64,000 nt of DNA, taken from contig JAGMVK010000016.1 of assembly GCA_020747065.1 (NCBI GenBank), forward strand, positions 992,001 through 1,056,000, given 5' to 3'. This DNA comes from Cadophora sp. MPI-SDFR-AT-0126 (taxonomy: Eukaryota > Ascomycota > Leotiomycetes > Helotiales > Ploettnerulaceae). Shown piece by piece: positions 1,821-49,764 of this stretch. A program made the position numbers and the translations under genes. The notes beneath the pieces were generated by a model that was given only the letters and a program-made list of their open reading frames with translations, made no database searches and was not told where the DNA came from. How positions within the stretch are numbered: the first letter of the stretch is position 1; each line of letters starts with the position of its first letter.

Positions 1821-4165
1821 TTTGATATGGAGGTATCGTGGAGAACGTGGTGAGTGGAAAGAAGGTGTTGAGAAAGAAAGTATTGAAAAGAGCTGAAAGA
1901 CTGGATAGCAAGTAGAAGAACTGTGCTGGTGAAGAAGAAGTTTCTCTTTTGCGGTGGACGACCGTCTACTTATACCCAGATTCGAGCAACTCCTCTCATC
2001 AGTACGGACTTCCTGGCTTTCCATCTCCGAGTCTCATGACTTGTCGGCATGATGCTATCACTCGATTTGGTTGCCAAGATGAGGATAGTCGAAACTGTGG
2101 TATGAAGGTCAGAGCATCTTTCTTCATAGATAAAGTCTATTTACCTCGAAGAGTGGTAACCGACCTTGGCATATCCAGACTGTTATAGTCGCTAGTCAAG
2201 TAGTCCAGGAACTTGGCAACGCAGCGCACTTCCATATCGTCTTTCGGCTCTCGCAAAGGTCCTCTTCGCTTGCGAGGTTTCAAAGACTTGACATTCCCCA
2301 TATATTGGTCCCGTGCATGAAGAATCGTGTCCCATTCGGGAAGAGGATGAGGCTAAGCGGATTCCTTCAGGGGTTGGTCGATCACCCGAGGATCATCCAA
2401 TAAGCTCACTGGTTTCAATATCAAACCTTATTCCCAAAAACACACATACTGCATGAAATCCATCGTCCGAAAATGGTCTTAGCGGTTTGCCAAGCTGTCA
2501 TGTAGAAACATCATGTGACATCGTGGACAGAAATAGCGAACCTTCAAGTAGAACTTTCCCAAAAGGTGGTTGCCAGGTTGTTTGGTTTCTCATGCACCTG
2601 CTGTGAAGCTTTTCTCGGGTTACAGGCGAACTCTAAATCTACTGAGCCCACTTAAGGCTGAAGCCCATGCTGACTCGCGCATGCCTTTGGCCTTTCGTTT
2701 AGATCTGGCTGAGATGCGTAGGTAATATGAATATTTCCATCTCCTGGCCCCTATATTTGCTTCGGAATCTGCCGATTATCTGTCGATACGCAGTCAACTT
2801 GAGAAAGAAGGAGATGTCAATGGAACGTCCCCTAACGGGGTCCCACTTGTCTGGAAGAATGTATCGCTCCGTCGCGCGTTCAAGATCAAACCGTACGTCT
2901 GGGCAGAAATGCCAGTCTTGTCCTTTTTACTCTAAATCTTTCCCCTCAATGATGGTTCCTGGAAGAAAAGGTGAGTTGAGTTTCCTCAATGGAATTCTAT
3001 ATGATATTTGTAGTATCATTCGGGGCACGAGTAGAATAGAGATGATTTGGCCTGGGACAGATAAATTCTTCAATTTTGGAGCCGAGAGTTTGCCGCCAAC
3101 GACAAGGCTGAGGGTTCAATGGCCTTTTGGACCATCACCATAGTCTGTAATTAGCCCAAGAGTGATGTTAGCAGTGTACATGAGCCACCGACCTTCGGTT
3201 GTTTATGGCTACTAATGATTGTTACACTATCTTTCGCGTCCAGTATCGTTGCAGATGGTCTTTGACCGTCAATTTAAATCATCGAATTCACAACTTTAGA
3301 CAGATCAATCTTGGTTTGTGAAGTCGACCTTTGAAAATGTGTCAGTATCAGTGCTCAGTTGGCCGAACCAAAACCGAAGGAGGCACTTCTTATTCAATAT
3401 CCATTGATGATAAGATGAGTCAAAACTTAAGTCGACCAGAAGAGACAGCATGTTTGTGAAAGTGTGCAAACAATGAACAGCTCCGCTCGAGAAAAGAAGC
3501 CCACGAATTTCCATATCAGGCTTGCCGAGACGTTTGTCAACAAAGAGCTGAAGCATCATGAAAGTCAACGGCCTCGTCTCATCAAAGATCGAGCCACTTA
3601 CAGGCCAATGTTGTCTCACGCGCTCTTTGACTTCTTGTTCAACGGTCGCTCGAAAATGCAAGGAATATTTAAATTGCGCAAGGGGATCAACAAACGACAG
3701 TCAAAAAAAATACACTGCCAAGCCCGGAGGTAAATGAGAAATGAGAACTGACTTAGCTGTGGCTCAGACCCTTCATAAGATTTCCACCGGAACGTATTCA
3801 TTTGTACTGAATCTCTCATTTGACGGTCGGGACCTGACCACCCACAGCTCCGGCAGATACAAGGACGACGTTTCGAGCGTAAGTTCTAATCCCTTCTCCA
3901 ATCCTTAGACCTCCTTACTTTCTTGTGTGCTCCCTCCCGAGCCTTCTTCCTATACTCTTATAGTGACCACTGTCATAATACTACTGCCTTCCACACCCAA
4001 ATATTGGATGAACCAAGCTGATCCACCAAAAGGCCGAGCAAGTGACAACAGCGAGATTCAGAATCGAATCATCCAAAATCCGCTCTCTCCTCCCGCCTCT
4101 CTCCACCAAACAGTCCAATAAAATGGCAGCCCCTCAACAATCGAAACGTTTAACAACCTCCCAAC
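1821..4165. other. intergenic, nothing assignable
   Basis: The part next to 1820 is the promoter of the small secreted protein gene. Beyond it, frames of 90-140 codons exist on both strands around 2727-3143 and 3305-3733, but none has a convincing start, splice signals or a known domain. The stretch may hold decayed sequence. Confidence 0.3.
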
Positions 4166-4769
4166 ATGACAAAACATTTGATCCTCGAGAAGCTACTCGT
4201 CTCCAGCGATGCGATCATCACCAACCCATGGATGCTACACAACCTGAACGACGACGATAACACCTACAAGCGGTACAGCTGGTGCCGTGGATTCAACATC
4301 GATATCCTCTGCACATCGAAGGAAATCCACGAGCTCGGGATGAAACTGCTGTACGAATTCAATACTTTCCGCTTCACCCGTCTCGTTGATGGCCAGGAAT
4401 GCGGTTCCATTCGATTACAGCGCTTCCTCGGAAAGAAAATCAGCATGTACTCGCCAAATGGGCCTGCGTGTCACAGCAATATCGCGTCCTTGATCAGAAG
4501 TGTTGTTATCCACAACTCGGAGCGCTTCTCAGGGATACGCACAATCATTCTCAGATGGCGCGGATGCCAGACTATTTCTTTTTGTCGGGAGTTGTCTTCG
4601 TTGTCTCAAGTCGCTGGGATGTCGATTACTTCGACTTACCATTACAGTCGATGAGCAAATTGATGGTGTTGTCGAATCTATCAAGGTGTACTCGGGATCA
4701 GGTGGTGAAGGAAATATGGTCGGATGCGTGGACTATACCGAGGACTTTTCTGGCAACAATAATGAGTAG
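4166..4769 (+). pseudogene. F-box-like fungal protein fragment, frameshifted
   Basis: The frame opening at 4166 reads like the N-terminal half of the large fungal F-box-like family. It has a short helix, a phrase equivalent to 'ITNPW', then a segment of the type 'L-x-T-C/S-K-x-I-x-E-x-G-x-x-L-L-Y-x-x-N-T-F-x-F', which these proteins share. Around 4530-4590 the family-like reading moves to another frame, where a typical CLKSLGCRLLRLTITV-like stretch continues to a stop at 4769. No GT-AG intron fits the switch, so a frameshift, and hence a decayed gene, is the simplest reading. An assembly error cannot be excluded. The assignment rests on pattern resemblance only. Confidence 0.35.
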
Positions 4770-6214
4770 GCACTCAGGACGATGCATGGGACAATATGCA
4801 TAGTTCTTTTGCTAGCGTCGCGGCCAATGTAGCCCACGATCCGGTGACACAATAGGATAGCAAGATGACAGAGGGCAAGAGGATTACGAAGACGAGAGGT
4901 CGTGGGGATCATGAATTGAGTGTCAACTTGCTCATCGTCCGAGTCTCAACATCTCCAACAGAAGATTCACGCCAAATGGCTCCAGCAGGAGCCCTTGGCG
5001 CAACCGCTCTTGACATCTGGCTTTCGTATTACGGCATTCGACCAAGTGCAGTCCGATACACTGGTCACTTCACAAAACGCGTCCTTCTGCCGGACGGCAG
5101 TATTCCCCCTTCAGATTGAGTTGCCAGATGTGGTGGATATGGCGACCATGAAACCAATGGCCTGGGTGACGATGCTGGCCAGCCTGCCCGCAGCGCAAAC
5201 ATCAACAGAAATGCCCCGATACATGTACTGATCTCAAGAACTATCAGTCGACGTGTCCCGTACTCCACACAATGATGTCGGATACGGCGAAGGGGAGCAC
5301 CAGATTGGCAGAGGTAGTGATCATCACGGGACAGGCGCAGTTGTGGATGATGATGTTGGCTTGGGCGGCATGAATTTGGGTACACACATGAGAGTAGAGT
5401 TCGTCAGTGATCGCATGTCTAATATCACTGATGTTTGGGGCTCGGCGATTTCGAGTTATATTCGCATTGTTGGCGTCTCGGGGTTGTTTGGATTGCTGCT
5501 GGTTCGCCGCTAAGAATATTCAATCAACGTAATCTTTCTCATCTCGTCTAAATGCCATGGTATTTTCATGTCTCAGTCTCGCCTTGATGTCACAGTCCCG
5601 CTGTCAATGGCTCATCGCGAAGTCGAAATCGAAAGTATAGTTTTCAGGTCTATTGCGATCGCATCGCCCTGCTACTTATGCTTCAATGGATTGATGTAAG
5701 TTGGTTGGAGGGTACGGGAGGCAAAACTTCTGTGAGAGCTAATTAGAAACCGACAACTTAATCAGAAAGCAAGCTTACATTGACAAGAATGATGTATTCA
5801 CTCTTTGAGACTGAGTACTGCTATCGGGTGGTTAAGACAGAATGTCAATTATGGTCGCCATTTCATCACACCTCGACCTCGCAACACACACAATTGGAAA
5901 AAGCTATCCACTTGCCTACCTCTTACTTTTCCATCGTTATAGTAGCCAAGTCGAGCATTTCCAACCATCTTGAGCGCCAGAAAACTCCACATATTATTTT
6001 CTCTTTCTTTTCAACGTCCCCTGTGAGTACGAGCTCACCTGGAGCCCCAACCGTTCATTCACTCACTCAACCTACCTGACGGAGACCCAAGGAGAATATC
6101 AGCTCTAGCCTTGCCTCCAGTCTTCCACAATAACAATTTGCTCGTCAATGTCTCTGCTGACTCGCTCCTACCTTGCTCGATAGCCAAACCACCTACACGG
6201 ATCACCTCTCCACC
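4770..6214. other. unresolved stretch with possible degraded coding sequence
   Basis: Three overlapping open frames of 84-103 codons lie between 4865 and 5385. Another, at 5253-5513, ends in a short hydrophobic segment resembling a membrane or GPI tail. They cannot be joined into one gene by convincing splice sites. From 5520 to 6200 nothing is seen apart from pyrimidine-rich promoter-like sequence. Confidence 0.25.
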
Positions 6215-37576: not shown

Positions 37577-38951
37577 TCATTTCTTCTCCGCCTTCTTCGC
37601 ACGATAAACCTCACCCGTCCTCTCAATCTCCTCTTCAGCATTCTTCCCTCTCCCCTCAGCTTCCAACTTCCTCACAAGCGGTAGCACCTCCCTCCCAAAT
37701 GCCTCAATATCCTCCTCATAATGCAAAAATGCCAAAAGCACAATATCAATCCCCAAACTCTTCAACAACAAAATTCTATCCGCAACCTGCTCCTTCGTAC
37801 CAATCAACTTGGTCTTAAACCCATCATTATACTGCACTAGGTCCTCAAACTTGCTATCCGCCCACATGCCCTTCTTATTACCTGTGGATGAGCCAGCCTG
37901 CTTGACCGCATCTCCAAAAGCTTCAACGGCTTCTTTGTCGGCTTTGCCCTGGATTTCGGAGAGCAGTTGTATGGCTTCTGCTTCTGTTTCCTTGACGATT
38001 GCGAAACCGTTGACGGCGAAGCGGACTTCGCCTGATCGGCCCGCTTTGGCAGCCCGCTCTTTGACGTCGGCGATTTGTTCTTGGAATCCTTCGAGGGTGT
38101 TGCCATTCATGAAGTAGTAATCTGAGACATTGGCACCATTATCTCGTGCATCGATTGAGTTGCCTCCTTGGAAAATCAGAGGATGAGGGCGATCAGGTAG
38201 GGAGAGAGGCTTGGGCGATAATGGGTAGTCGTGAAACTGGTAGAAGTCGCCTTTGAATGTGAATTTCTCCTGTGTCCAGATTCCTCGTAGACATTCGATG
38301 AACTCCCTGCTACGACGGTATCGCTCGGCGTGCTCGAGCCACCATTGTCCAATGCTGGTGAACTCTGCTTTGAACCAGCCGGAAACTACATTGACAGAAA
38401 TCCGCCCACTGGTGTAGTGATCAATGCTTGCGATTTGCTTCGCTGCCACGGCGGGATTCCAAGGCCCTGGAAGGAGCGCCGCAATCACGTTCAGCTTTTT
38501 TGTGGCATGTAGGAGAGCTTGAGAGAAGGAGACGGATTCGTGTTGGTTTTCCTAGAGATGTTAGCGACTGTTTAGACGAAGAGGTGGGGAAAAGGACTGA
38601 CTGCTCCATATCCTGCCATGAAACGAATTTGGGTGAGCGCATATTCGAACCCGACATTCTCAGCTGTTTGCGCGTATCTGACATTGGAATCGTAGTCCCA
38701 GCTTGGAATGGTCAGTAACGCAACCATTTGCTTGGAATCAGGTCCAATGCTTACCCAGTCCGTTGTGGAATCTTTGAGATGACCAGTCCTCCCGAGACAT
38801 TTGGGACCCAGTATGCGAATTTGACTCGATCAGGATCATCGTTGATGTCTGAAGCTGCGGTGTAATGATCTCCATTCAGAGCTGCATTTCCATGTCCATT
38901 CTGAGCCACAGCGGCGGTGCCATTGGAAGTTCTCTGTCGTTTGGCTGGCAT
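37577..38951 (-). CDS. SfnG-like FMNH2-dependent dimethyl sulfone monooxygenase
   Basis: Three exons (38755-38951, 38602-38701, 37577-38551) encode 423 residues. After a ~42-residue Asn/Ala/Gly-rich N-terminal extension the protein reads KFAYWVPNVSGGLVISKIPQ, then FEYALTQIRFMAGYGAENQH, IAALLPGPWNPAVAAKQIAS, IDHYTSGRISVNVVSGWFK and FIFQGGNS-like segments. These are the successive strands of a luciferase-like TIM barrel, and closely follow bacterial SfnG rather than nitrilotriacetate or alkanesulfonate monooxygenases. SfnG converts dimethyl sulfone, with O2 and reduced FMN, to methanesulfinate and formaldehyde, so that sulfur can be assimilated. A separate flavin reductase is required. The second intron has a less common GTCAGT donor but keeps frame. 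There is no targeting signal, so it is probably cytosolic. It is divergent from the SfnB-like gene. Close relatives with another organosulfur substrate cannot be excluded. Confidence 0.85.
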
Positions 38952-40722
38952 ATTCAATTGCAATTACTTTTGTGGACGAGCAGAAGTATGACAAAAAAAA
39001 AAGAGATGACAGCAATTGAACTGCGGAAACGAACGAAAGCAAAATCCAAGCAGGGAGAACGGACGATGGGAAGAGCTGCAAGCTACTCCACCCCACGTTG
39101 TCTTTCAGGTTCACCTAGAAAGATGGCAAGGCTGGCCTAGTCCTATTATGAACTATTCAGACTGAGATCGAGGCATCTATTCGATAGAAGCATGGATGGT
39201 GTGCTCCTCAAAGTTCGAGGTATGGTGCAATCCACCCCCATCATGAGCAATTCCTCTCCAAGCCCAATCGGGACTTCCGACGACGATCAACTGCATGAAC
39301 TACTATTTGATAGGACAATGAGTGGTAGACCGGTTCCTTAGGAGGGACTATTAAAGCAAAGTGTCGATATGGTGTAGATCTGGGAATTCCTTTTCCTCAG
39401 AGATTGGAGGCGTCGTCGACGTCGTCCCTCGAGTGCCGAACCGCCGGGAAGTGAAGCGAGGTACCACTGTGTTCTTAGCGTTCCGTATCTGACTTAGTGT
39501 CTTTTTGGTCGAGGTCCTGCTCCTGTATCAATTGGCCCTGAACATATGCTGATGGCTACGCGAATATGGCTATGGCGTTGAAGAACGCGGGCGGCGCGTT
39601 TGCGTTTATGGCAGGTATGTTGGTTATTATATGGTTGCACATGAGTGATGGTTTCGTGGTTGCATTACATGGCTGTTTGGGGACCAAAAGGTTGACCAAA
39701 AATAGATCTATGACTGTCCTCGTTTTTACATATATATTAATTTACCTTGTCTGAGCTCCCATGCATTGTTCTTGAGCCGTAGACAGGGGGTAGTTGTAGA
39801 TTATCTGAAGCGTTGAAGTACAATTTTCGCATAAGAAATCTACAATCGTCAAAGAGGCTAATCAAATAGTGCCAATGCTGGATGCGAAAGTGTGCGAAAG
39901 AGGTCTGGATCTTGGAATGATGAAATTCTTGCTTTGGAAGGCGTGATATTAGGGTTCGAGTGGACCCACGGGAGCTTGATAGCGGGGTAAAACCCTTGGG
40001 AATTGGCCGATTAAAGGACAAAACGTTTTGCAAAGCTCTTGTGATTCTTTGAGTACTCAATAGCAGCAATTTGATCGAGATGAGATTTCAATTGCCATAA
40101 AAAGGTCTATGGTATCAAAGGATGAGATTTCGAGCTGTAATCGACCTGATACCGTACCGTACCCCGCCATATGCCAAGCCGTGCCCCTCCAACATAAGAA
40201 CTCAAACTCAACATCATCCGATGTCAACAACGACATCCCCGTTCTACCGATCCAAACAGTAGCCGCCAAACTCCCCCACGCCGCCCACATGCGGTTAAGC
40301 AAGTCTTTAAGGAAGCAAGTCTCCTTCTATCCAGCCTCGTTCCACTTTCCCAAGCGCAGATGCAATCCTTGCTGCAAGTGCAGCAGTGCAGCAGCTCGAA
40401 CTGACGTGCTCGTCGATCGACGAAGCTATCCCTAATGGATCAAGCTCTCTCAGCCTTGCGTATCGCACCTCAGCTACATTATCGCGCAATCTTTATCGAC
40501 CTGTGAGTCGCTATTGGAGCTCTCGGAGGTCGTGGATATGGCGATAGTTGAGAGGCTTGTTGCACCATCTGGTTTGACTGTGATTGCTCTGGTATATGGA
40601 TAGCTAGGTTCGTACAGCCGGTACCAATTTCTATTTTCCCTCATTGCGATCAATTACAATTGTTTCTTTGCTTCGAACATTCTCGCAATTAGAGCTTCCA
40701 CGTACTGCGTCTCATTGTAAAC
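38952..40722. promoter_or_regulatory. divergent region between sfnG-like and sfnB-like genes
   Basis: A 1771-nt gap between two divergent start codons. One site, ATGGTATCAA at 40109-40118, matches the Cys-3/MetR consensus ATGRYRYCAT at nine of ten positions. About 0.6 such matches are expected by chance in this length, so this is weak support. A 62-codon frame at 39566-39754 with a hydrophobic stretch has no other support. Confidence 0.35.
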
Positions 40723-42206
40723 ATGGCTCCATCAGTAGCAGAAACCCGCATCGCAACCGAACCGGCTTCCAAGAAAGTGAAACCCAATCCCACGTCCGAT
40801 CCCCTCATCTACGATATCCACCACCAAAAGTTCCTCAGCGACGGTCTTCCATCCACAGAATCCGCATGGATTGAGCGAGCCCACCAAGTTAGCGAGATCT
40901 TCGCTCAAGATGCCGCAGCACGAGATATCGAGAACAAAACTCCACGAGCAGAAGTCTCGCTATTGAAGAGCTCTGGATTGTTGAAACTTCTGGGGCCCAA
41001 GCATATTGGTGGAGGCGGTCAGGACTGGGAGGTTGGATATAAGGTTATCAGGGAGGTGGCCAAGGGAGATGGGAGTTTGGGGATGTTGTTGGGATATCAT
41101 TTGCTATGGTCGACTACGGCTAATGTGGTGGGCACGGATGAGCAGAAAGAGAGGATTCAGAAGTTGATTATTGAAAATAATTATTTTGTTGGAGGTAAAT
41201 TTCACAAGGCTACAAGGGAACATTGTGCTGATCTAGCCAGGTGCTGTCAATCCGAGAGATAATGACTTGAACATAACTGAGGAAGGAGACCATCTCGTGT
41301 TCGATGGCTTCAAGAACTTCAATACTGGTGGTGTTGTATCTGACTTGACTGTTCTTGAAGGCGTATATGCCGGAACAGAGCACCACATCTTCGCATTCGT
41401 CCCAACTGCCCAACCAGGCATCGAATTCGCTGTAAGACCCCAAAGCTCTCTTGTGATCCTAATCCTAACAATCAACAGCACAACTGGAACAACGTCGGCC
41501 TCCGCCTCACTGAATCCGGCAGCGTCCGCATCAACAAAATCCAAGTCCCCTGGACAGACGCCCTTGGCTGGGACACTGAAACAAAAGCTCCAAACCCAGC
41601 CTATCTCAGTATCCCCTTTGGAACTCTTCTCCTCCCCACAATCCAACTCGTCTTCTCCAACTTCTACCTCGGCATTGCGCAAGGCTCCCTCTCCTTCGCC
41701 GCAAAATACACCACGACAAGCACACGCGCCTGGCCTTACGGTGGCGACAACAAGGCCTCCCCCACAGAGGAATTCTACATCTTAGAGCGCTACGGGAATT
41801 TCTTCGCGCACCTACGCGCTGCTGAAACGCTTGCTGATAGAGCTGGCAAAGAGGTTGCAGATGTGTACAGGAAGCATGGTGAGAAGCGGACGGTGAATAA
41901 GCGAGAGAGGGGTGAAGTTGCAGAGTGGGTTGCGAGCGCGAAGGTTGTGACGACTGATACGGCGCTGAGAGTTACGGCGGGGGTATTTGAGGTTACAGGG
42001 AGTAGAGCGACGGGAAGGAAGGTGGGGCTGGATAGGTTTTGGAGAGATGTTAGGACGCATACGTTGCATGATCCGGTGGCGTATAAGAATAGGGAGTTGG
42101 GAGAGTTTGTGCTGCTCGATAAGGTGAGTCTCCATTGTCTGTCTGATGCCAATTTTCGACGTCGCTGATGATTGAACAGGTCCCTGAGCCAACTTGGTAC
42201 ACGTGA
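40723..42206 (+). CDS. SfnB-like sulfur-acquisition oxidoreductase (acyl-CoA dehydrogenase fold)
   Basis: Four exons (40723-41194, 41241-41431, 41479-42123, 42180-42206) give 444 residues; the last exon is a 27-nt micro-exon coding VPEPTWYT. The N-terminal helical domain carries RAEVSLLKSSGLLKLLGPKH and VAKGDGSLGMLLGYHLLWS. The middle beta domain carries GGAVNPRDNDLN, FDGFKNFNTGG and WNNVGLRLTESGSV. The C-terminal helix bundle contains the ARVTADTALRVTAGVFEVTGS-like flavin stretch and DRFWRDVRTHTLHDPVAYK, where RTHTLHDP is the DszC/SfnB-type end of the flavin site. The family belongs with flavin-dependent sulfur monooxygenases and is linked to growth on organosulfur compounds in Pseudomonas; its exact reaction is not settled. 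The divergent SfnG-like gene makes a sulfone/sulfonate scavenging role likely. It is expected in the cytosol. Confidence 0.83.
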
Positions 42207-46888: not shown

Positions 46889-47974
46889 TTATAACATCTC
46901 TAAAGCTTGTTTCAATGCTTGTCCCGCTGATACTCGCGCATCATGGACAATATCCTCCGCTGCCTGGACTTCATGAATGAGACCAATCCCAGTACCTGCG
47001 TAGGTTGTCAGTCTTCCATCCTCGCCCCATCCCTTGTCGCCCTGCTTCAAAGCCTCTTTAAATTTCGCTTGATTTTCTTCGAAAGGAATCCCAGCATCAG
47101 AATCCTTTGTACTTCCATTGATGATACTTCGACCATCAAATTGAGGTGGCCAATTGTTCCTGCCAGCCAACGTATCAAAAAGTGGTGTCCTAACAGTCGA
47201 TTGGCCCCCGTCTTGGGTGCGCAAAATCTCGTTCTGGTATCCAGCAGCAATGTCTGCCTCCTTTGAGGCGAGGAATCGAGTTCCCATCACAGCGCCCACG
47301 GCACCCAGTCCGAGAGCAGCAGCTACCCCTCTTCCATCTGCGATACCTCCTGCAGCAACGATAGGAATATCCAGTCCTGCCTTTCTCATTGCGTCCCTCA
47401 CTTCTGGGACCAAAGAAACGATCCCTGCTCCTTTGGCCAGACCATGGCCGCCAGCGTCGATACCTTGAAGTACGAGGATATCGGGAGGATTCGATAACTT
47501 TGCAGCCTTCATGGCATCGTAAATTGATCCAACTTGGAGCCAAATTTGAGTTTTTGGAGACACCTTCCGAATTTCTCTCATCCACACTGAAAGATCATCC
47601 GTTCCTTCTCTAGGCACAAAGAGCCATGCTGCAGCTGGTCGATGCTTCGCAATTGAAGACAGCGCAACCTCAAGATTTGCATCAAAAATCTGGAACCCAA
47701 CCCCAATTGGTAGCTTGTCTTCCAAATCTGCAGAGGAAATGCTCAACCGTGATTTTTGTGTTTGAAGTCGATTCTCGAGTATACTCCGAGCTTTTTGAAG
47801 GGCTGGTTCAAGATCTTCAGGTGCTTTTCCCGGGCCCATGAAGCCGATTCCACCTGCCGAGGATACGGCTGTTGCAAGTTCGGGGCCACTGAAAACTCGC
47901 ATTGGAGCACCGATTATAAGAGGCGTTGAAACCCATCTGTAAGTAGACTTTAACAACTTGACTGAAGACGCCAT
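46889..47974 (-). CDS. nitronate monooxygenase (2-nitropropane dioxygenase family)
   Basis: A single exon codes 361 residues. The FMN TIM barrel is clear: PLIIGAPMRVFSGPELATAV near the N-terminus, GGIGFMGPG, LPIGVGFQIFD, and LVLQGIDAGGHG with the His next to the flavin. IPIVAAGGIADGRGVAAALGLGAVGAVMGTRF binds the FMN phosphate. The enzyme oxidises alkyl nitronates such as propionate-3-nitronate to carbonyls plus nitrite/nitrate. It needs FMN but no reductase. The start at 47974 was chosen over an upstream in-frame extension (to 48199), which looks non-coding. Lack of introns contrasts with most neighbours but is not unusual for this family. No signal peptide is seen. It may detoxify a plant nitro-toxin or a product of neighbouring enzymes; that is inference. 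Confidence 0.9.
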   Translation of the reverse strand: MASSVKLLKSTYRWVSTPLIIGAPMRVFSGPELATAVSSAGGIGFMGPGKAPEDLEPALQKARSILENRLQTQKSRLSISSADLEDKLPIGVGFQIFDANLEVALSSIAKHRPAAAWLFVPREGTDDLSVWMREIRKVSPKTQIWLQVGSIYDAMKAAKLSNPPDILVLQGIDAGGHGLAKGAGIVSLVPEVRDAMRKAGLDIPIVAAGGIADGRGVAAALGLGAVGAVMGTRFLASKEADIAAGYQNEILRTQDGGQSTVRTPLFDTLAGRNNWPPQFDGRSIINGSTKDSDAGIPFEENQAKFKEALKQGDKGWGEDGRLTTYAGTGIGLIHEVQAAEDIVHDARVSAGQALKQALEML

Positions 47975-49764
47975 TTTGAGAATTTCGAAGAGTTGGAGAG
48001 TCTGAAGGAAGTCGAAGCCGTTATATGACTCGAGTAGTTGCCGCGGAGATGCTGAGGGGGGGACCCGCCACATTGAACGAAAATGTGGGGTAATTGTCAG
48101 CAGCGAGATATAGCTCTGCTGGGAATGACGACGATTGATGCATAGTAAACGACCTTGCCATTCTGACTGAGAAGAAGAAATGGTGAGGTCGATGGTCAAG
48201 TTTTTAAGTCATCCAAAGCCTCATGGCTTGGAGGTGGCCAGGTGGGTCGGAAGTATCAAGAATTGTCTGACGATCCCTTTCACTAGACGGAGCATAGATG
48301 CGCTCAACCTCAACTCAGGATCATCGTGCGAATGAGCCTTTATGATCGCTTTCTGCTCATCTCGATTTTGCAGTTGCGTGAGGACGGCTATAAGTGGCAG
48401 TCCAGCCGATATCGTGAACAAATGTTGAGAAAACATGTCGGACTTGCGGAAGCATTTACAATGGCTGGAAAAAGATCTCTTCCATTGAAGTTCTCTGAAT
48501 ATGCCATTGCGTAAACTTTCAAGTGTGACCACGCAATGGATCGTCACCTCCTTGCCACGAGCACCCACAACGCCTGGAAAAGCCACTGCCACATGCACTT
48601 GAGCGGATACACTTATCCGGCAGTGCTCCTGATTGTTGCTGAACATTAAATAAGCTTTCTCTTGAAAGTTGCCAAGATTTAATCTTACCTTTTCGAAGGT
48701 CAATCGTCATCTGGAGGTGCCTTTTGTTTCAGGCCCAGTGGACAGCCCCTCCTCGGTCCCGAATTGCACTGCTTGGCATTGCTTGAGTGTTGAGTAGCAA
48801 AAAGTACCGCACTCTTCAGGTGAGACGAGCCTCACAGCATTTATAACACCAGACTCCAATAATTCTTGATTGCCCAGGTGGGACATGGGAGGACTTTGTT
48901 TCTTCGCGTTGTAGGTCTTGCGTTCGCCAGGACTTGATCATTGCCTTCCGCAGTCTTCAAGACGAACTGACAATTAGTGGTTGAGAAATCGCCTCATCTG
49001 TTATCCTCAACCCCTGCAGTAGGCACACACATCAGCGGAAACTTATTTATGAGAACAAGAGTATTGCGAGGGGCTTCGCGTTAGTCCAATGTACTGAAGG
49101 GTCTTCGTCAACAAACAACCGAGGAGGCCATATTCAAAAGGGGGTGGAGATCAAGACGGGGGTCGTCGATGCAGTCTTCGAATCCCCACAACTCGAAAAA
49201 AATCTTAATCGGCCACATGAATAAAAGTAGATACCATTACGCTTAGCGACCTGATCTGGCTCACTCTGGGCGCCTCCCTGGTTTGCCATAACCACATTCT
49301 AGAACATTGTGTCTTCTTGTGGGGACAGCTGGGCTGCGTAACCGCTGTTCCAACAAAGCTCATAACACGGCAGTGTCCGTGTTGTGGCTTGGCAACCCAC
49401 GCTCCACTTCAGGGTCGATCACTCCAATTTCTGGCCCATTTTCGGGACCGAGTCGTCTATTTTGGTGAGCATCACCAGCCTTGTGAATGGAGCTGAGTTT
49501 CTGGGACGACCTCGTCATTTAATCATCCTGGCCCGGATGCGTCAGCTTTTCCCTCGAGCGACGTCTCCCATATTTCTAGGAAGGCAGAAAAATGCCGGAC
49601 AAGATGGTTTGTGGGACTGTGGAATGGATAGGGGAATCGAATACTATAATATCAGGTCTGCCGTTTCCAATCATGTTCTTGAATTATCGTCGACTTCCAC
49701 AGACATCGACATTCGTCATTCTTTAATTCCCCTTTTGTTCGTGTTCTCCTCAGCTTTCCTTAAC
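47975..49764. promoter_or_regulatory. divergent region, nitronate monooxygenase / carboxylesterase
   Basis: A 1790-nt gap between divergent starts. A 160-codon minus-strand frame at 48221-48703 has no recognisable domain or splice context and is not called. The frame of the esterase stays open upstream to 49384 but without a protein-like start. Confidence 0.4.

What the first reader, a model, noticed from the sequence alone, without database searches (positions are those of the whole stretch)
37577..42206. Divergent SfnG-like / SfnB-like pair: a candidate fungal dimethyl-sulfone sulfur-scavenging module
Two adjacent, divergently transcribed, intron-containing genes encode proteins with the characteristic segments of bacterial SfnG (FMNH2-dependent dimethyl sulfone monooxygenase) and SfnB (acyl-CoA-dehydrogenase-like sulfur acquisition oxidoreductase). 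In Pseudomonas these act in the DMSO2 to methanesulfinate to sulfonate to sulfite route under sulfate starvation. Finding both next to each other in a fungus suggests either an ancient gene transfer, since spliced, or independent clustering, and a sulfur source rarely considered for fungi.
Basis: partly seen in the sequence, partly recalled or inferred. Interest (0 to 1): 0.8.

Follow-up and report, generated by a model that had tools for sequence, protein, structure and literature searches.

The report
Fungal dimethyl-sulfone sulfur-scavenging gene pair
A fungus carries two neighbouring genes related to bacterial genes that draw sulfur from dimethyl sulfone; the pair is shared by many fungi and looks bacterial in origin, and a transporter gene that sits with it in other fungi has decayed here.

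Summary
The two divergent, spliced genes are real and the coordinates are right. The minus-strand gene is a true SfnG: it passes the curated cut-off (579 vs 383 bits). The plus-strand gene is not SfnB: it fails the SfnB (219 vs 431) and DszC (272 vs 850) cut-offs, and joint clades with SfnB, MsuC or DszC are rejected (SfnB weakly, p 0.03). Its orthologs are an unnamed flavin monooxygenase type, 49-57% identical, in 18 of 296 sampled Actinomycetes; 16 of these 18 carry it within 2 kb of sfnG, 12 also with SfnB- and SsuD-type genes. In fungi the two genes share a contig in 13 of 15 assemblies recognisable in both homolog lists, and a GPR1/FUN34 transporter shares it in 25 of 31; here only a frameshifted relic is left. 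Best reading: a linked pair of bacterial type that turns dimethyl sulfone into methanesulfinate (SfnG) and then methanesulfonate (partner). Substrates, expression and growth are untested. Joint transfer from Actinobacteria fits the partner; SfnG does not decide it.

The parts
37577..38951 (-). SfnG (dimethylsulfone monooxygenase family) gene, exons 38951-38755, 38701-38602, 38551-37577; 423 aa
   Evidence: model; TIGR04021 578.7 bits, cut-off 382.95; PDB 8t0u, 491 bits
38702..38754 (-). intron 1 of SfnG (GT..AG, 53 nt)
38552..38601 (-). intron 2 of SfnG (GT..AG, 50 nt)
40723..42206 (+). acyl-CoA-dehydrogenase-fold (group D) flavin monooxygenase gene, ortholog of an unnamed actinobacterial sfnG neighbour; exons 40723-41194, 41241-41431, 41479-42123, 42180-42206; 444 aa
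   Evidence: (model)
41195..41240 (+). intron 1 of the monooxygenase gene (46 nt)
41432..41478 (+). intron 2 (47 nt)
42124..42179 (+). intron 3 (56 nt)
39548..39645 (+). relic of a GPR1/FUN34/YaaH transporter gene: about 33 codons of its C-terminal part, with a frame change near 39620 and then a stop; the rest is not detectable
   Evidence: only window-wide hit of 13 of 13 transporter queries at E<=0.01; control, sequence; the intact gene in other fungi
38952..40722 (.). shared upstream region between the two genes; no exact CYS-3/MetR-type site ATGRYRYCAT

Best explanation
The pair is the fungal form of a bacterial sulfur-scavenging module. SfnG uses reduced FMN and oxygen to cut dimethyl sulfone (DMSO2) into methanesulfinate and, presumably, formaldehyde. 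The partner, a DszC/MsuC-like two-component flavin monooxygenase, then most likely oxidises methanesulfinate to methanesulfonate. A separate reductase supplies reduced FMN, and unlinked sulfonate-cleaving enzymes would release sulfite. The two genes are of bacterial type and are already neighbours in bacteria; many fungi keep them linked, often with a GPR1/FUN34 transporter, which has decayed in this species. Shown here: family of SfnG, orthology of the partner, linkage in bacteria and fungi, the relic. Inferred: substrates, order of steps, sulfur-starvation role, direction and number of transfers.
For: SfnG passes its curated cut-off, matches the crystallised DMSO2 monooxygenase 8t0u at 491 bits with the next structure at 177, and keeps 138 of 149 positions that are at least 97% conserved in 87 bacterial SfnG rows. 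The partner keeps 118 of 145 residues invariant in 16 actinobacterial orthologs. Orthologs at 49-57% identity in 18 of 296 sampled Actinomycetes; 17 of those 18 have SfnG and 16 of 18 have it within 2 kb of the partner gene. In these 18 loci an SfnB-type gene is seen in 13, an SsuD-type in 12, an SsuE-type reductase in 6; in one, L182, the family assignments were checked. Since SfnB is there as a separate gene, the partner fills the slot that MsuC (methanesulfinate to methanesulfonate) has in pseudomonads (pathway: PMC8234197, passages). Like MsuC it has a short A-x-N-P loop where DszC has a longer SSENN loop. Fungi plus actinobacterial orthologs form one clade, SH-aLRT 100. Linkage in fungi: same contig in 13 of 15 assemblies recognisable in both lists; in the 8 with readable locus tags the two are 1-3 tags apart. 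Exophiala spinifera: SfnG g9837 and a DszC-like g9836 in a table of PMC11778650 (passages). In Neurospora a gene called dibenzothiophene desulfurization enzyme (NCU05888) is a CYS-3 target (PMC8550094, passages); its orthology to the partner was not tested.
Against: No substrate, expression or growth data. A. baylyi MsuC was slow on methanesulfinate and its deletion gave no significant defect (PMC13352529, passages), and the review PMC5857272 takes the sulfinate to sulfonate step as non-enzymatic in bacteria (passages), so the second step may need no enzyme. In Candida albicans, deletions of alkanesulfonate- and FMNH2-type monooxygenase genes gave no growth defect on taurine (PMC13170222, passages); these are other genes, but they show that such roles need not be visible. 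No exact ATGRYRYCAT site in the shared upstream region; the one-mismatch sites there are unremarkable against 29 in 64 kb. The transporter is a relic here, so the cluster may be losing function in this lineage. 2 of 15 assemblies do not keep the pair on one contig, and 6 of 31 do not keep the transporter with it. Fungi+SfnB is rejected only at p 0.031.
Confidence: 0.55

Rival explanations
1. Same module, other order: the partner works upstream of SfnG and oxidises dimethyl sulfide and dimethyl sulfoxide to DMSO2, as Dms1-3 do in Acinetobacter baylyi or DszC does for dibenzothiophene.
For: Group D flavin monooxygenases of A. baylyi do these steps (PMC13352529, passages). The best PDB score of the partner is DszC (237 bits), then MsuC (222). 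The own-genome search with the nearest relative found only this one gene, though that search did not ring ordinary acyl-CoA dehydrogenases either, so distant paralogs may be missed.
Against: In actinobacterial loci a separate SfnB-type gene is often also present (13 of 18). At the position of DszC Asn129 (3x0x numbering, read) the protein has Gly, at Ser163 Thr; that these are active-site residues is recalled. A clade with DszC is rejected, p 2e-6.
Confidence: 0.2
2. The pair acts on other organosulfur compounds (larger sulfones, plant or microbial sulfur volatiles, xenobiotics), for scavenging or detoxification rather than for DMSO2.
For: Fungal annotations call the partner thermophilic desulfurizing enzyme or dibenzothiophene desulfurization enzyme C, and E. 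spinifera uses dibenzothiophene (PMC11778650, start of abstract and passages). Several SfnG models are fused to an MDR/PF00107 part (11 of 120 proteins listed).
Against: SfnG is far over its curated cut-off and conserved positions are largely kept. The DszC cut-off is not reached.
Confidence: 0.2
3. Linkage in fungi is not functional: two old genes that happen to stay together, now decaying in this species.
For: The transporter between them is a relic here; Piccolia and Stromatinia have the two genes on different contigs.
Against: Linkage recurs in many Pezizomycotina and in 16 of 18 Actinomycetes that carry the partner; both genes here have open frames.
Confidence: 0.05

Closest known systems
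SfnG, FMNH2-dependent dimethylsulfone monooxygenase (TIGR04021; PDB 8t0u)
   Same: Family cut-off passed, near full-length match, conserved residues kept
   Different: Spliced nuclear gene with an N-terminal extension of about 40 residues; the 26 fungal rows form one clade
Actinobacterial unnamed group D monooxygenase near sfnG (e.g. L182:8326-9543)
   Same: 49-57% identity, one clade with the fungal proteins, same neighbour sfnG
   Different: In 12 of 18 bacterial loci SfnB- and SsuD-type genes are near too; no such gene was seen next to the pair in the fungus
MsuC, methanesulfinate monooxygenase (6u76; clade member L048:14041)
   Same: Acyl-CoA-dehydrogenase fold, HDP motif, A-x-N-P loop, same place in the pathway proposed
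   Different: About 34-35% identity, separate clade, p-AU 0.0005 for a joint clade
SfnB (TIGR04022)
   Same: Superfamily fold
   Different: 219 vs cut-off 431 bits; separate clade; both types occur near each other in Actinomycetes
DszC/TdsC dibenzothiophene monooxygenase (4doy, 5xb8; NF043015)
   Same: Best PDB match by score
   Different: 272 vs cut-off 850 bits; N129 and S163 positions changed; longer loop absent
Exophiala spinifera SfnG/DszC-like genes g9837 and g9836 (PMC11778650)
   Same: Consecutive gene numbers, same two families
   Different: Listed there as separate dibenzothiophene candidates; the passages read do not comment on the pair

Membership tests
SfnG (TIGR04021) | curated whole-protein score cut-off 382.95 bits | tested here: met
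   578.7 bits
SfnG (TIGR04021) | residues conserved across bacterial SfnG | tested here: met
   138 of 149 columns kept, 87 bacterial rows; 11 changed
SfnG (TIGR04021) | turns DMSO2 into methanesulfinate with FMNH2 | not testable with these tools
   enzyme assay needed
SfnB (TIGR04022) | curated cut-off 430.9 bits | tested here: not met
   219.1 bits; two other fungal orthologs 221.6 and 196.8
SfnB (TIGR04022) | position inside the SfnB clade | tested here: not met
   (joint clade p-AU 0.031)
DszC (NF043015) | curated cut-off 850 bits | tested here: not met
   271.8 bits
MsuC | position inside the MsuC clade | tested here: not met
   (p-AU 0.0005); no MsuC model appeared among the NCBIfam matches
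MsuC | oxidises methanesulfinate to methanesulfonate | not testable with these tools
   enzyme assay needed
Actinobacterial sfnG-neighbour monooxygenase (unnamed) | orthology and sfnG neighbourhood | tested here: met
   fungal pair in the window
GPR1/FUN34/YaaH transporter (relic) | intact transporter gene | tested here: not met
   about 33 codons, frame change, stop

The most novel reading that the evidence does not exclude
Fungi took up a linked sfnG-monooxygenase pair from Actinobacteria in one event before the Pezizomycotina classes split, and added a GPR1/FUN34 (acetate-channel family) transporter that now carries methanesulfinate or methanesulfonate, which resemble acetate in shape; this would be a eukaryotic DMSO2 sulfur pathway of bacterial make with its own transporter, lost in part in the lineage of this window.
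Probability: 0.3. Interest if true: 0.68.

Novelty: new variant of a known kind. Interest (0 to 1): 0.5.

Why it matters
If true, many ascomycetes can draw sulfur from dimethyl sulfone, a product of the dimethyl sulfide cycle, by an enzyme pair of bacterial origin. [quoted passage not shown] The pair names two enzymes and a candidate transporter to test, and it shows that the common fungal labels 'thermophilic desulfurizing enzyme' and DszC hide a distinct monooxygenase type.

Tried and rejected
SfnB identity of the partner: rejected. DszC identity: rejected by cut-off and tree. A first tree without the actinobacterial orthologs left the fungal clade on a long stem; replaced. A search for labelled DszC genes in 394 Actinomycetes found none and its control rang nowhere, so it says nothing. 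The class of a Bradyrhizobium genome: 1 of 289 genomes at E<=1e-60, 37% identity. The class of P. aeruginosa PA7: 1 of 369 at E<=1e-70, G880 at 52%, without SfnG in the 11 kb read of its 17 kb contig. Plasmids: 3 of 595 records have a best place at 60-80% identity; they are not among the 30 rows listed and were not looked at. A donor for SfnG could not be fixed: the free tree puts fungi with Proteobacteria (support 75); the best tree found with fungi and Actinobacteria held together was 20 log units better than that free tree, which shows that the quick search was shallow, and p-AU is 0.76. MDR/PF00107 relic in the intergenic region: none; the nearest MDR gene is on contig C33, and I saw no sulfur gene in the 10 kb around it by reading its ORFs, without a family search. 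CYS-3/MetR site: no exact match. Repeats in the region: three short direct families and three weak inverted pairs. Paper searches: one search gave nothing, nothing on fungal sulfur sources in its listing, another the Neurospora paper again, another the Raffaelea and Bipolaris papers (passages; the Bipolaris passage was only a gene in a table). Neither structure prediction nor fold search was run.

Limits: homolog lists show only the best 120 of thousands or of 571. Linkage counts were made by eye from assemblies recognisable by locus tag or equal contig length in the lists; equal contig length shows one contig, not adjacency, and 5 of the 13 pairs and most of the 25 transporter cases rest on it alone. 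Pyrenophora tritici-repentis was left out because its clusters mix assemblies. Rows dropped: L173 and L181 from the 18 actinobacterial orthologs (length or stop filter); 16 actinobacterial and 71 other bacterial SfnG rows were kept; 25 other bacterial rows were chosen by hand. Trees are quick searches.
Full report
What is there. The window lies in a 54 Mb genome of 38 contigs. The nearest proteins are those of Cadophora malorum and C. gregata (SfnG, 96%) and Cadophora sp. M221 (partner, 89%), so it is a Cadophora-like Helotiales fungus by inference. Between 37577 and 42206 lie two divergent genes. Splice models with only GT..AG introns give open frames of 423 and 444 aa. No RNA evidence was available.

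SfnG. The minus-strand protein scores 578.7 bits to TIGR04021 (cut-off 382.95), far above its scores to alkanesulfonate monooxygenase models (134-136) and RutA (126). The closest solved structure is a dimethylsulfone monooxygenase, 8t0u (491 bits; next best 177). It keeps 138 of 149 positions that are at least 97% conserved in 87 bacterial SfnG rows. In a tree of 74 rows the 26 fungal SfnG are one clade (100). The free tree puts them beside Proteobacteria (support 75), but the best tree found with fungi and Actinobacteria held together was 20 log units better, p-AU 0.76, so the donor is open.

The partner. The plus-strand protein has the acyl-CoA-dehydrogenase N- and C-terminal Pfam domains. 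It is below the cut-offs of SfnB (219.1 vs 430.9) and DszC (271.8 vs 850). Bacterial genes were labelled by score: L048:9254-10477 is SfnB (618.8 bits), L048:14041-15228 is MsuC (809 bits to 6u76). In samples of bacterial classes, close relatives appear as a group in the class of an Actinomadura genome: 18 of 296 genomes at 49-57% identity, then a gap to 43% and below. The class of a Bradyrhizobium genome gave 1 of 289 at 37%, that of P. aeruginosa PA7 1 of 369 at 52%, and 28 genomes with SfnG, mostly Proteobacteria, no long match above 39%. Other phyla were not searched. In a 65-row tree fungi and 16 of the 18 actinobacterial orthologs are one clade (100), apart from SfnB, MsuC and DszC. Holding fungi with SfnB, MsuC or DszC is rejected at p 0.031, 0.0005 and 2e-6; these are quick trees and the SfnB rejection is weak.

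Neighbourhood in bacteria. 17 of the 18 Actinomycetes with the partner have SfnG, and in 16 of 18 it lies within 2 kb (13 side by side on one strand, L177 and L185 with one gene between, L179 divergent as in the fungus). Around them an SfnB-type gene is seen in 13 of 18 stretches, an SsuD-type in 12 and an SsuE-type in 6, by best match to the genes of L182. In L182 these were checked by family: SfnG 631.5 bits, partner below the SfnB and DszC cut-offs, SsuE-type reductase 230.9 (cut-off 164), SfnB 570.1, SsuD-like 465.8 (cut-off 518.2, so under it). Among 80 bacterial sfnG loci, 46 have any gene of the partner's superfamily in the flanks held (E<=1e-6) and 14 have one at 196 bits or more. Two of the nearest plasmid genes, 43-44% identical, also lie beside SfnB and LLM monooxygenase genes, in Shinella and Rhizobium.

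Neighbourhood in fungi. Of 15 assemblies recognisable in both best-120 lists, 13 have the two genes on one contig; in the 8 with readable tags they are 1 to 3 tags apart (Mollisiaceae, Drepanopeziza, Hymenoscyphus, Chaenotheca, Bogoriella 3; Trypethelium, Kalmusia 2; Alyxoria 1). Piccolia and Stromatinia have them apart. By recalled taxonomy these span at least five classes of Pezizomycotina. Six of 120 partner proteins are annotated as fused to a GPR1/FUN34/YaaH transporter. A search with that part finds a transporter on the same contig as SfnG or the partner, or next to it by tag, in 25 of 31 assemblies recognisable in the lists; among them HYFRA_00007133, M4579_002653, M1820_006933 lie between the two, and PV08_05944 is next to the partner PV08_05943. 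In 6 of 31 it is on another contig (Neofusicoccum ribis, Coleophoma, Saccharata, Aspergillus saccharolyticus, Polychaeton, Piccolia); since the family has many members, some of these may be paralogs. Eleven of 120 SfnG proteins are annotated as fused to an MDR/PF00107 part; whether fusions are real or gene-model errors is open.

The relic. In the window the transporter is reduced to about 33 codons at 39548-39645, plus strand, with a frame change near 39620 and a stop. It is the only window-wide match at E<=0.01 for 13 of 13 transporter proteins, 29.6 to 39.7 bits; 533 shuffled or reversed queries reach at most 28.1 bits in the intergenic stretch. No close intact copy was found elsewhere in the genome (best 37%).

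How it most likely works. SfnG: DMSO2 to methanesulfinate. Partner: methanesulfinate to methanesulfonate, because in Actinomycetes it sits with sfnG and, in many loci, with an SsuD-type gene and a separate SfnB-type gene, in the place that MsuC has in pseudomonads (pathway from PMC8234197, passages), and because it shares the A-x-N-P loop with MsuC and not DszC. This is inference from context. FMN reductase candidates exist (7 PF03358 matches at about 5 places), as do an SsuD-like gene at C8:638384 (193 bits, under its cut-off 518) and 33 TauD-family matches counted exon by exon; none is in this window. No second gene of the partner's type was found in this genome, but that search did not ring ordinary acyl-CoA dehydrogenases either. 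The rival order, oxidation of DMS and DMSO, is real for related enzymes of A. baylyi (PMC13352529, passages).

Compared with print. Linder 2018 (PMC5857272, passages) says such monooxygenases are conserved in fungi and uncharacterised. PMC11778650 (passages) lists SfnG g9837 and a DszC-like g9836 in E. spinifera. PMC8550094 (passages) shows NCU05888, called a dibenzothiophene desulfurization enzyme, under CYS-3 control. Raffaelea lauricola raises five alkanesulfonate monooxygenase genes in its host (PMC7441637, passages). In C. albicans related monooxygenase mutants grew on taurine (PMC13170222, passages). In nine searches of the open library I saw no listed paper that describes the fungal pair with its transporter or its actinobacterial counterpart; only the top listings were seen and subscription papers are mostly not held.

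Verdict. A real SfnG gene with an open frame and a partner that is not SfnB but the ortholog of an actinobacterial monooxygenase; an old linked module in fungi, with its transporter lost here. The parts are of known kinds; the combination and its history are a new variant. Function remains to be tested.

Noticed in passing
window 39548-39645: Relic of a GPR1/FUN34/YaaH transporter gene that is intact near the same genes in many other fungi.
   Followed up: yes
L028 (G000:C33), about 4136-5634, minus strand: An MDR/quinone-reductase-like gene, the best match in this genome to the part fused to SfnG in other fungi, stands apart from the pair.
   Followed up: partly
proteins P0030, P0031, P0035, P0047, P0048, P0052-P0055, P0060, P0071: SfnG annotated as fused to an MDR/PF00107 part in several lineages; true fusion or gene-model read-through unknown.
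   Followed up: partly
L205 (G880:C35): A genome drawn from the class of P. aeruginosa carries a 52% ortholog of the partner without SfnG in the 11 kb of contig read; possible separate transfer or contaminating contig.
   Followed up: partly
P0101: A basidiomycete (Mycena maculata) SfnG groups inside ascomycete sequences, suggesting transfer between fungi.
   Followed up: no
window 46892-48208, minus strand: Nitronate monooxygenase family gene (PF03060) a few kb from the pair; no link to it tested.
   Followed up: no
L029 (G000:C8:638384-639340): Alkanesulfonate-monooxygenase-like gene in one open frame on the same contig, about 390 kb away, under the family cut-off.
   Followed up: partly
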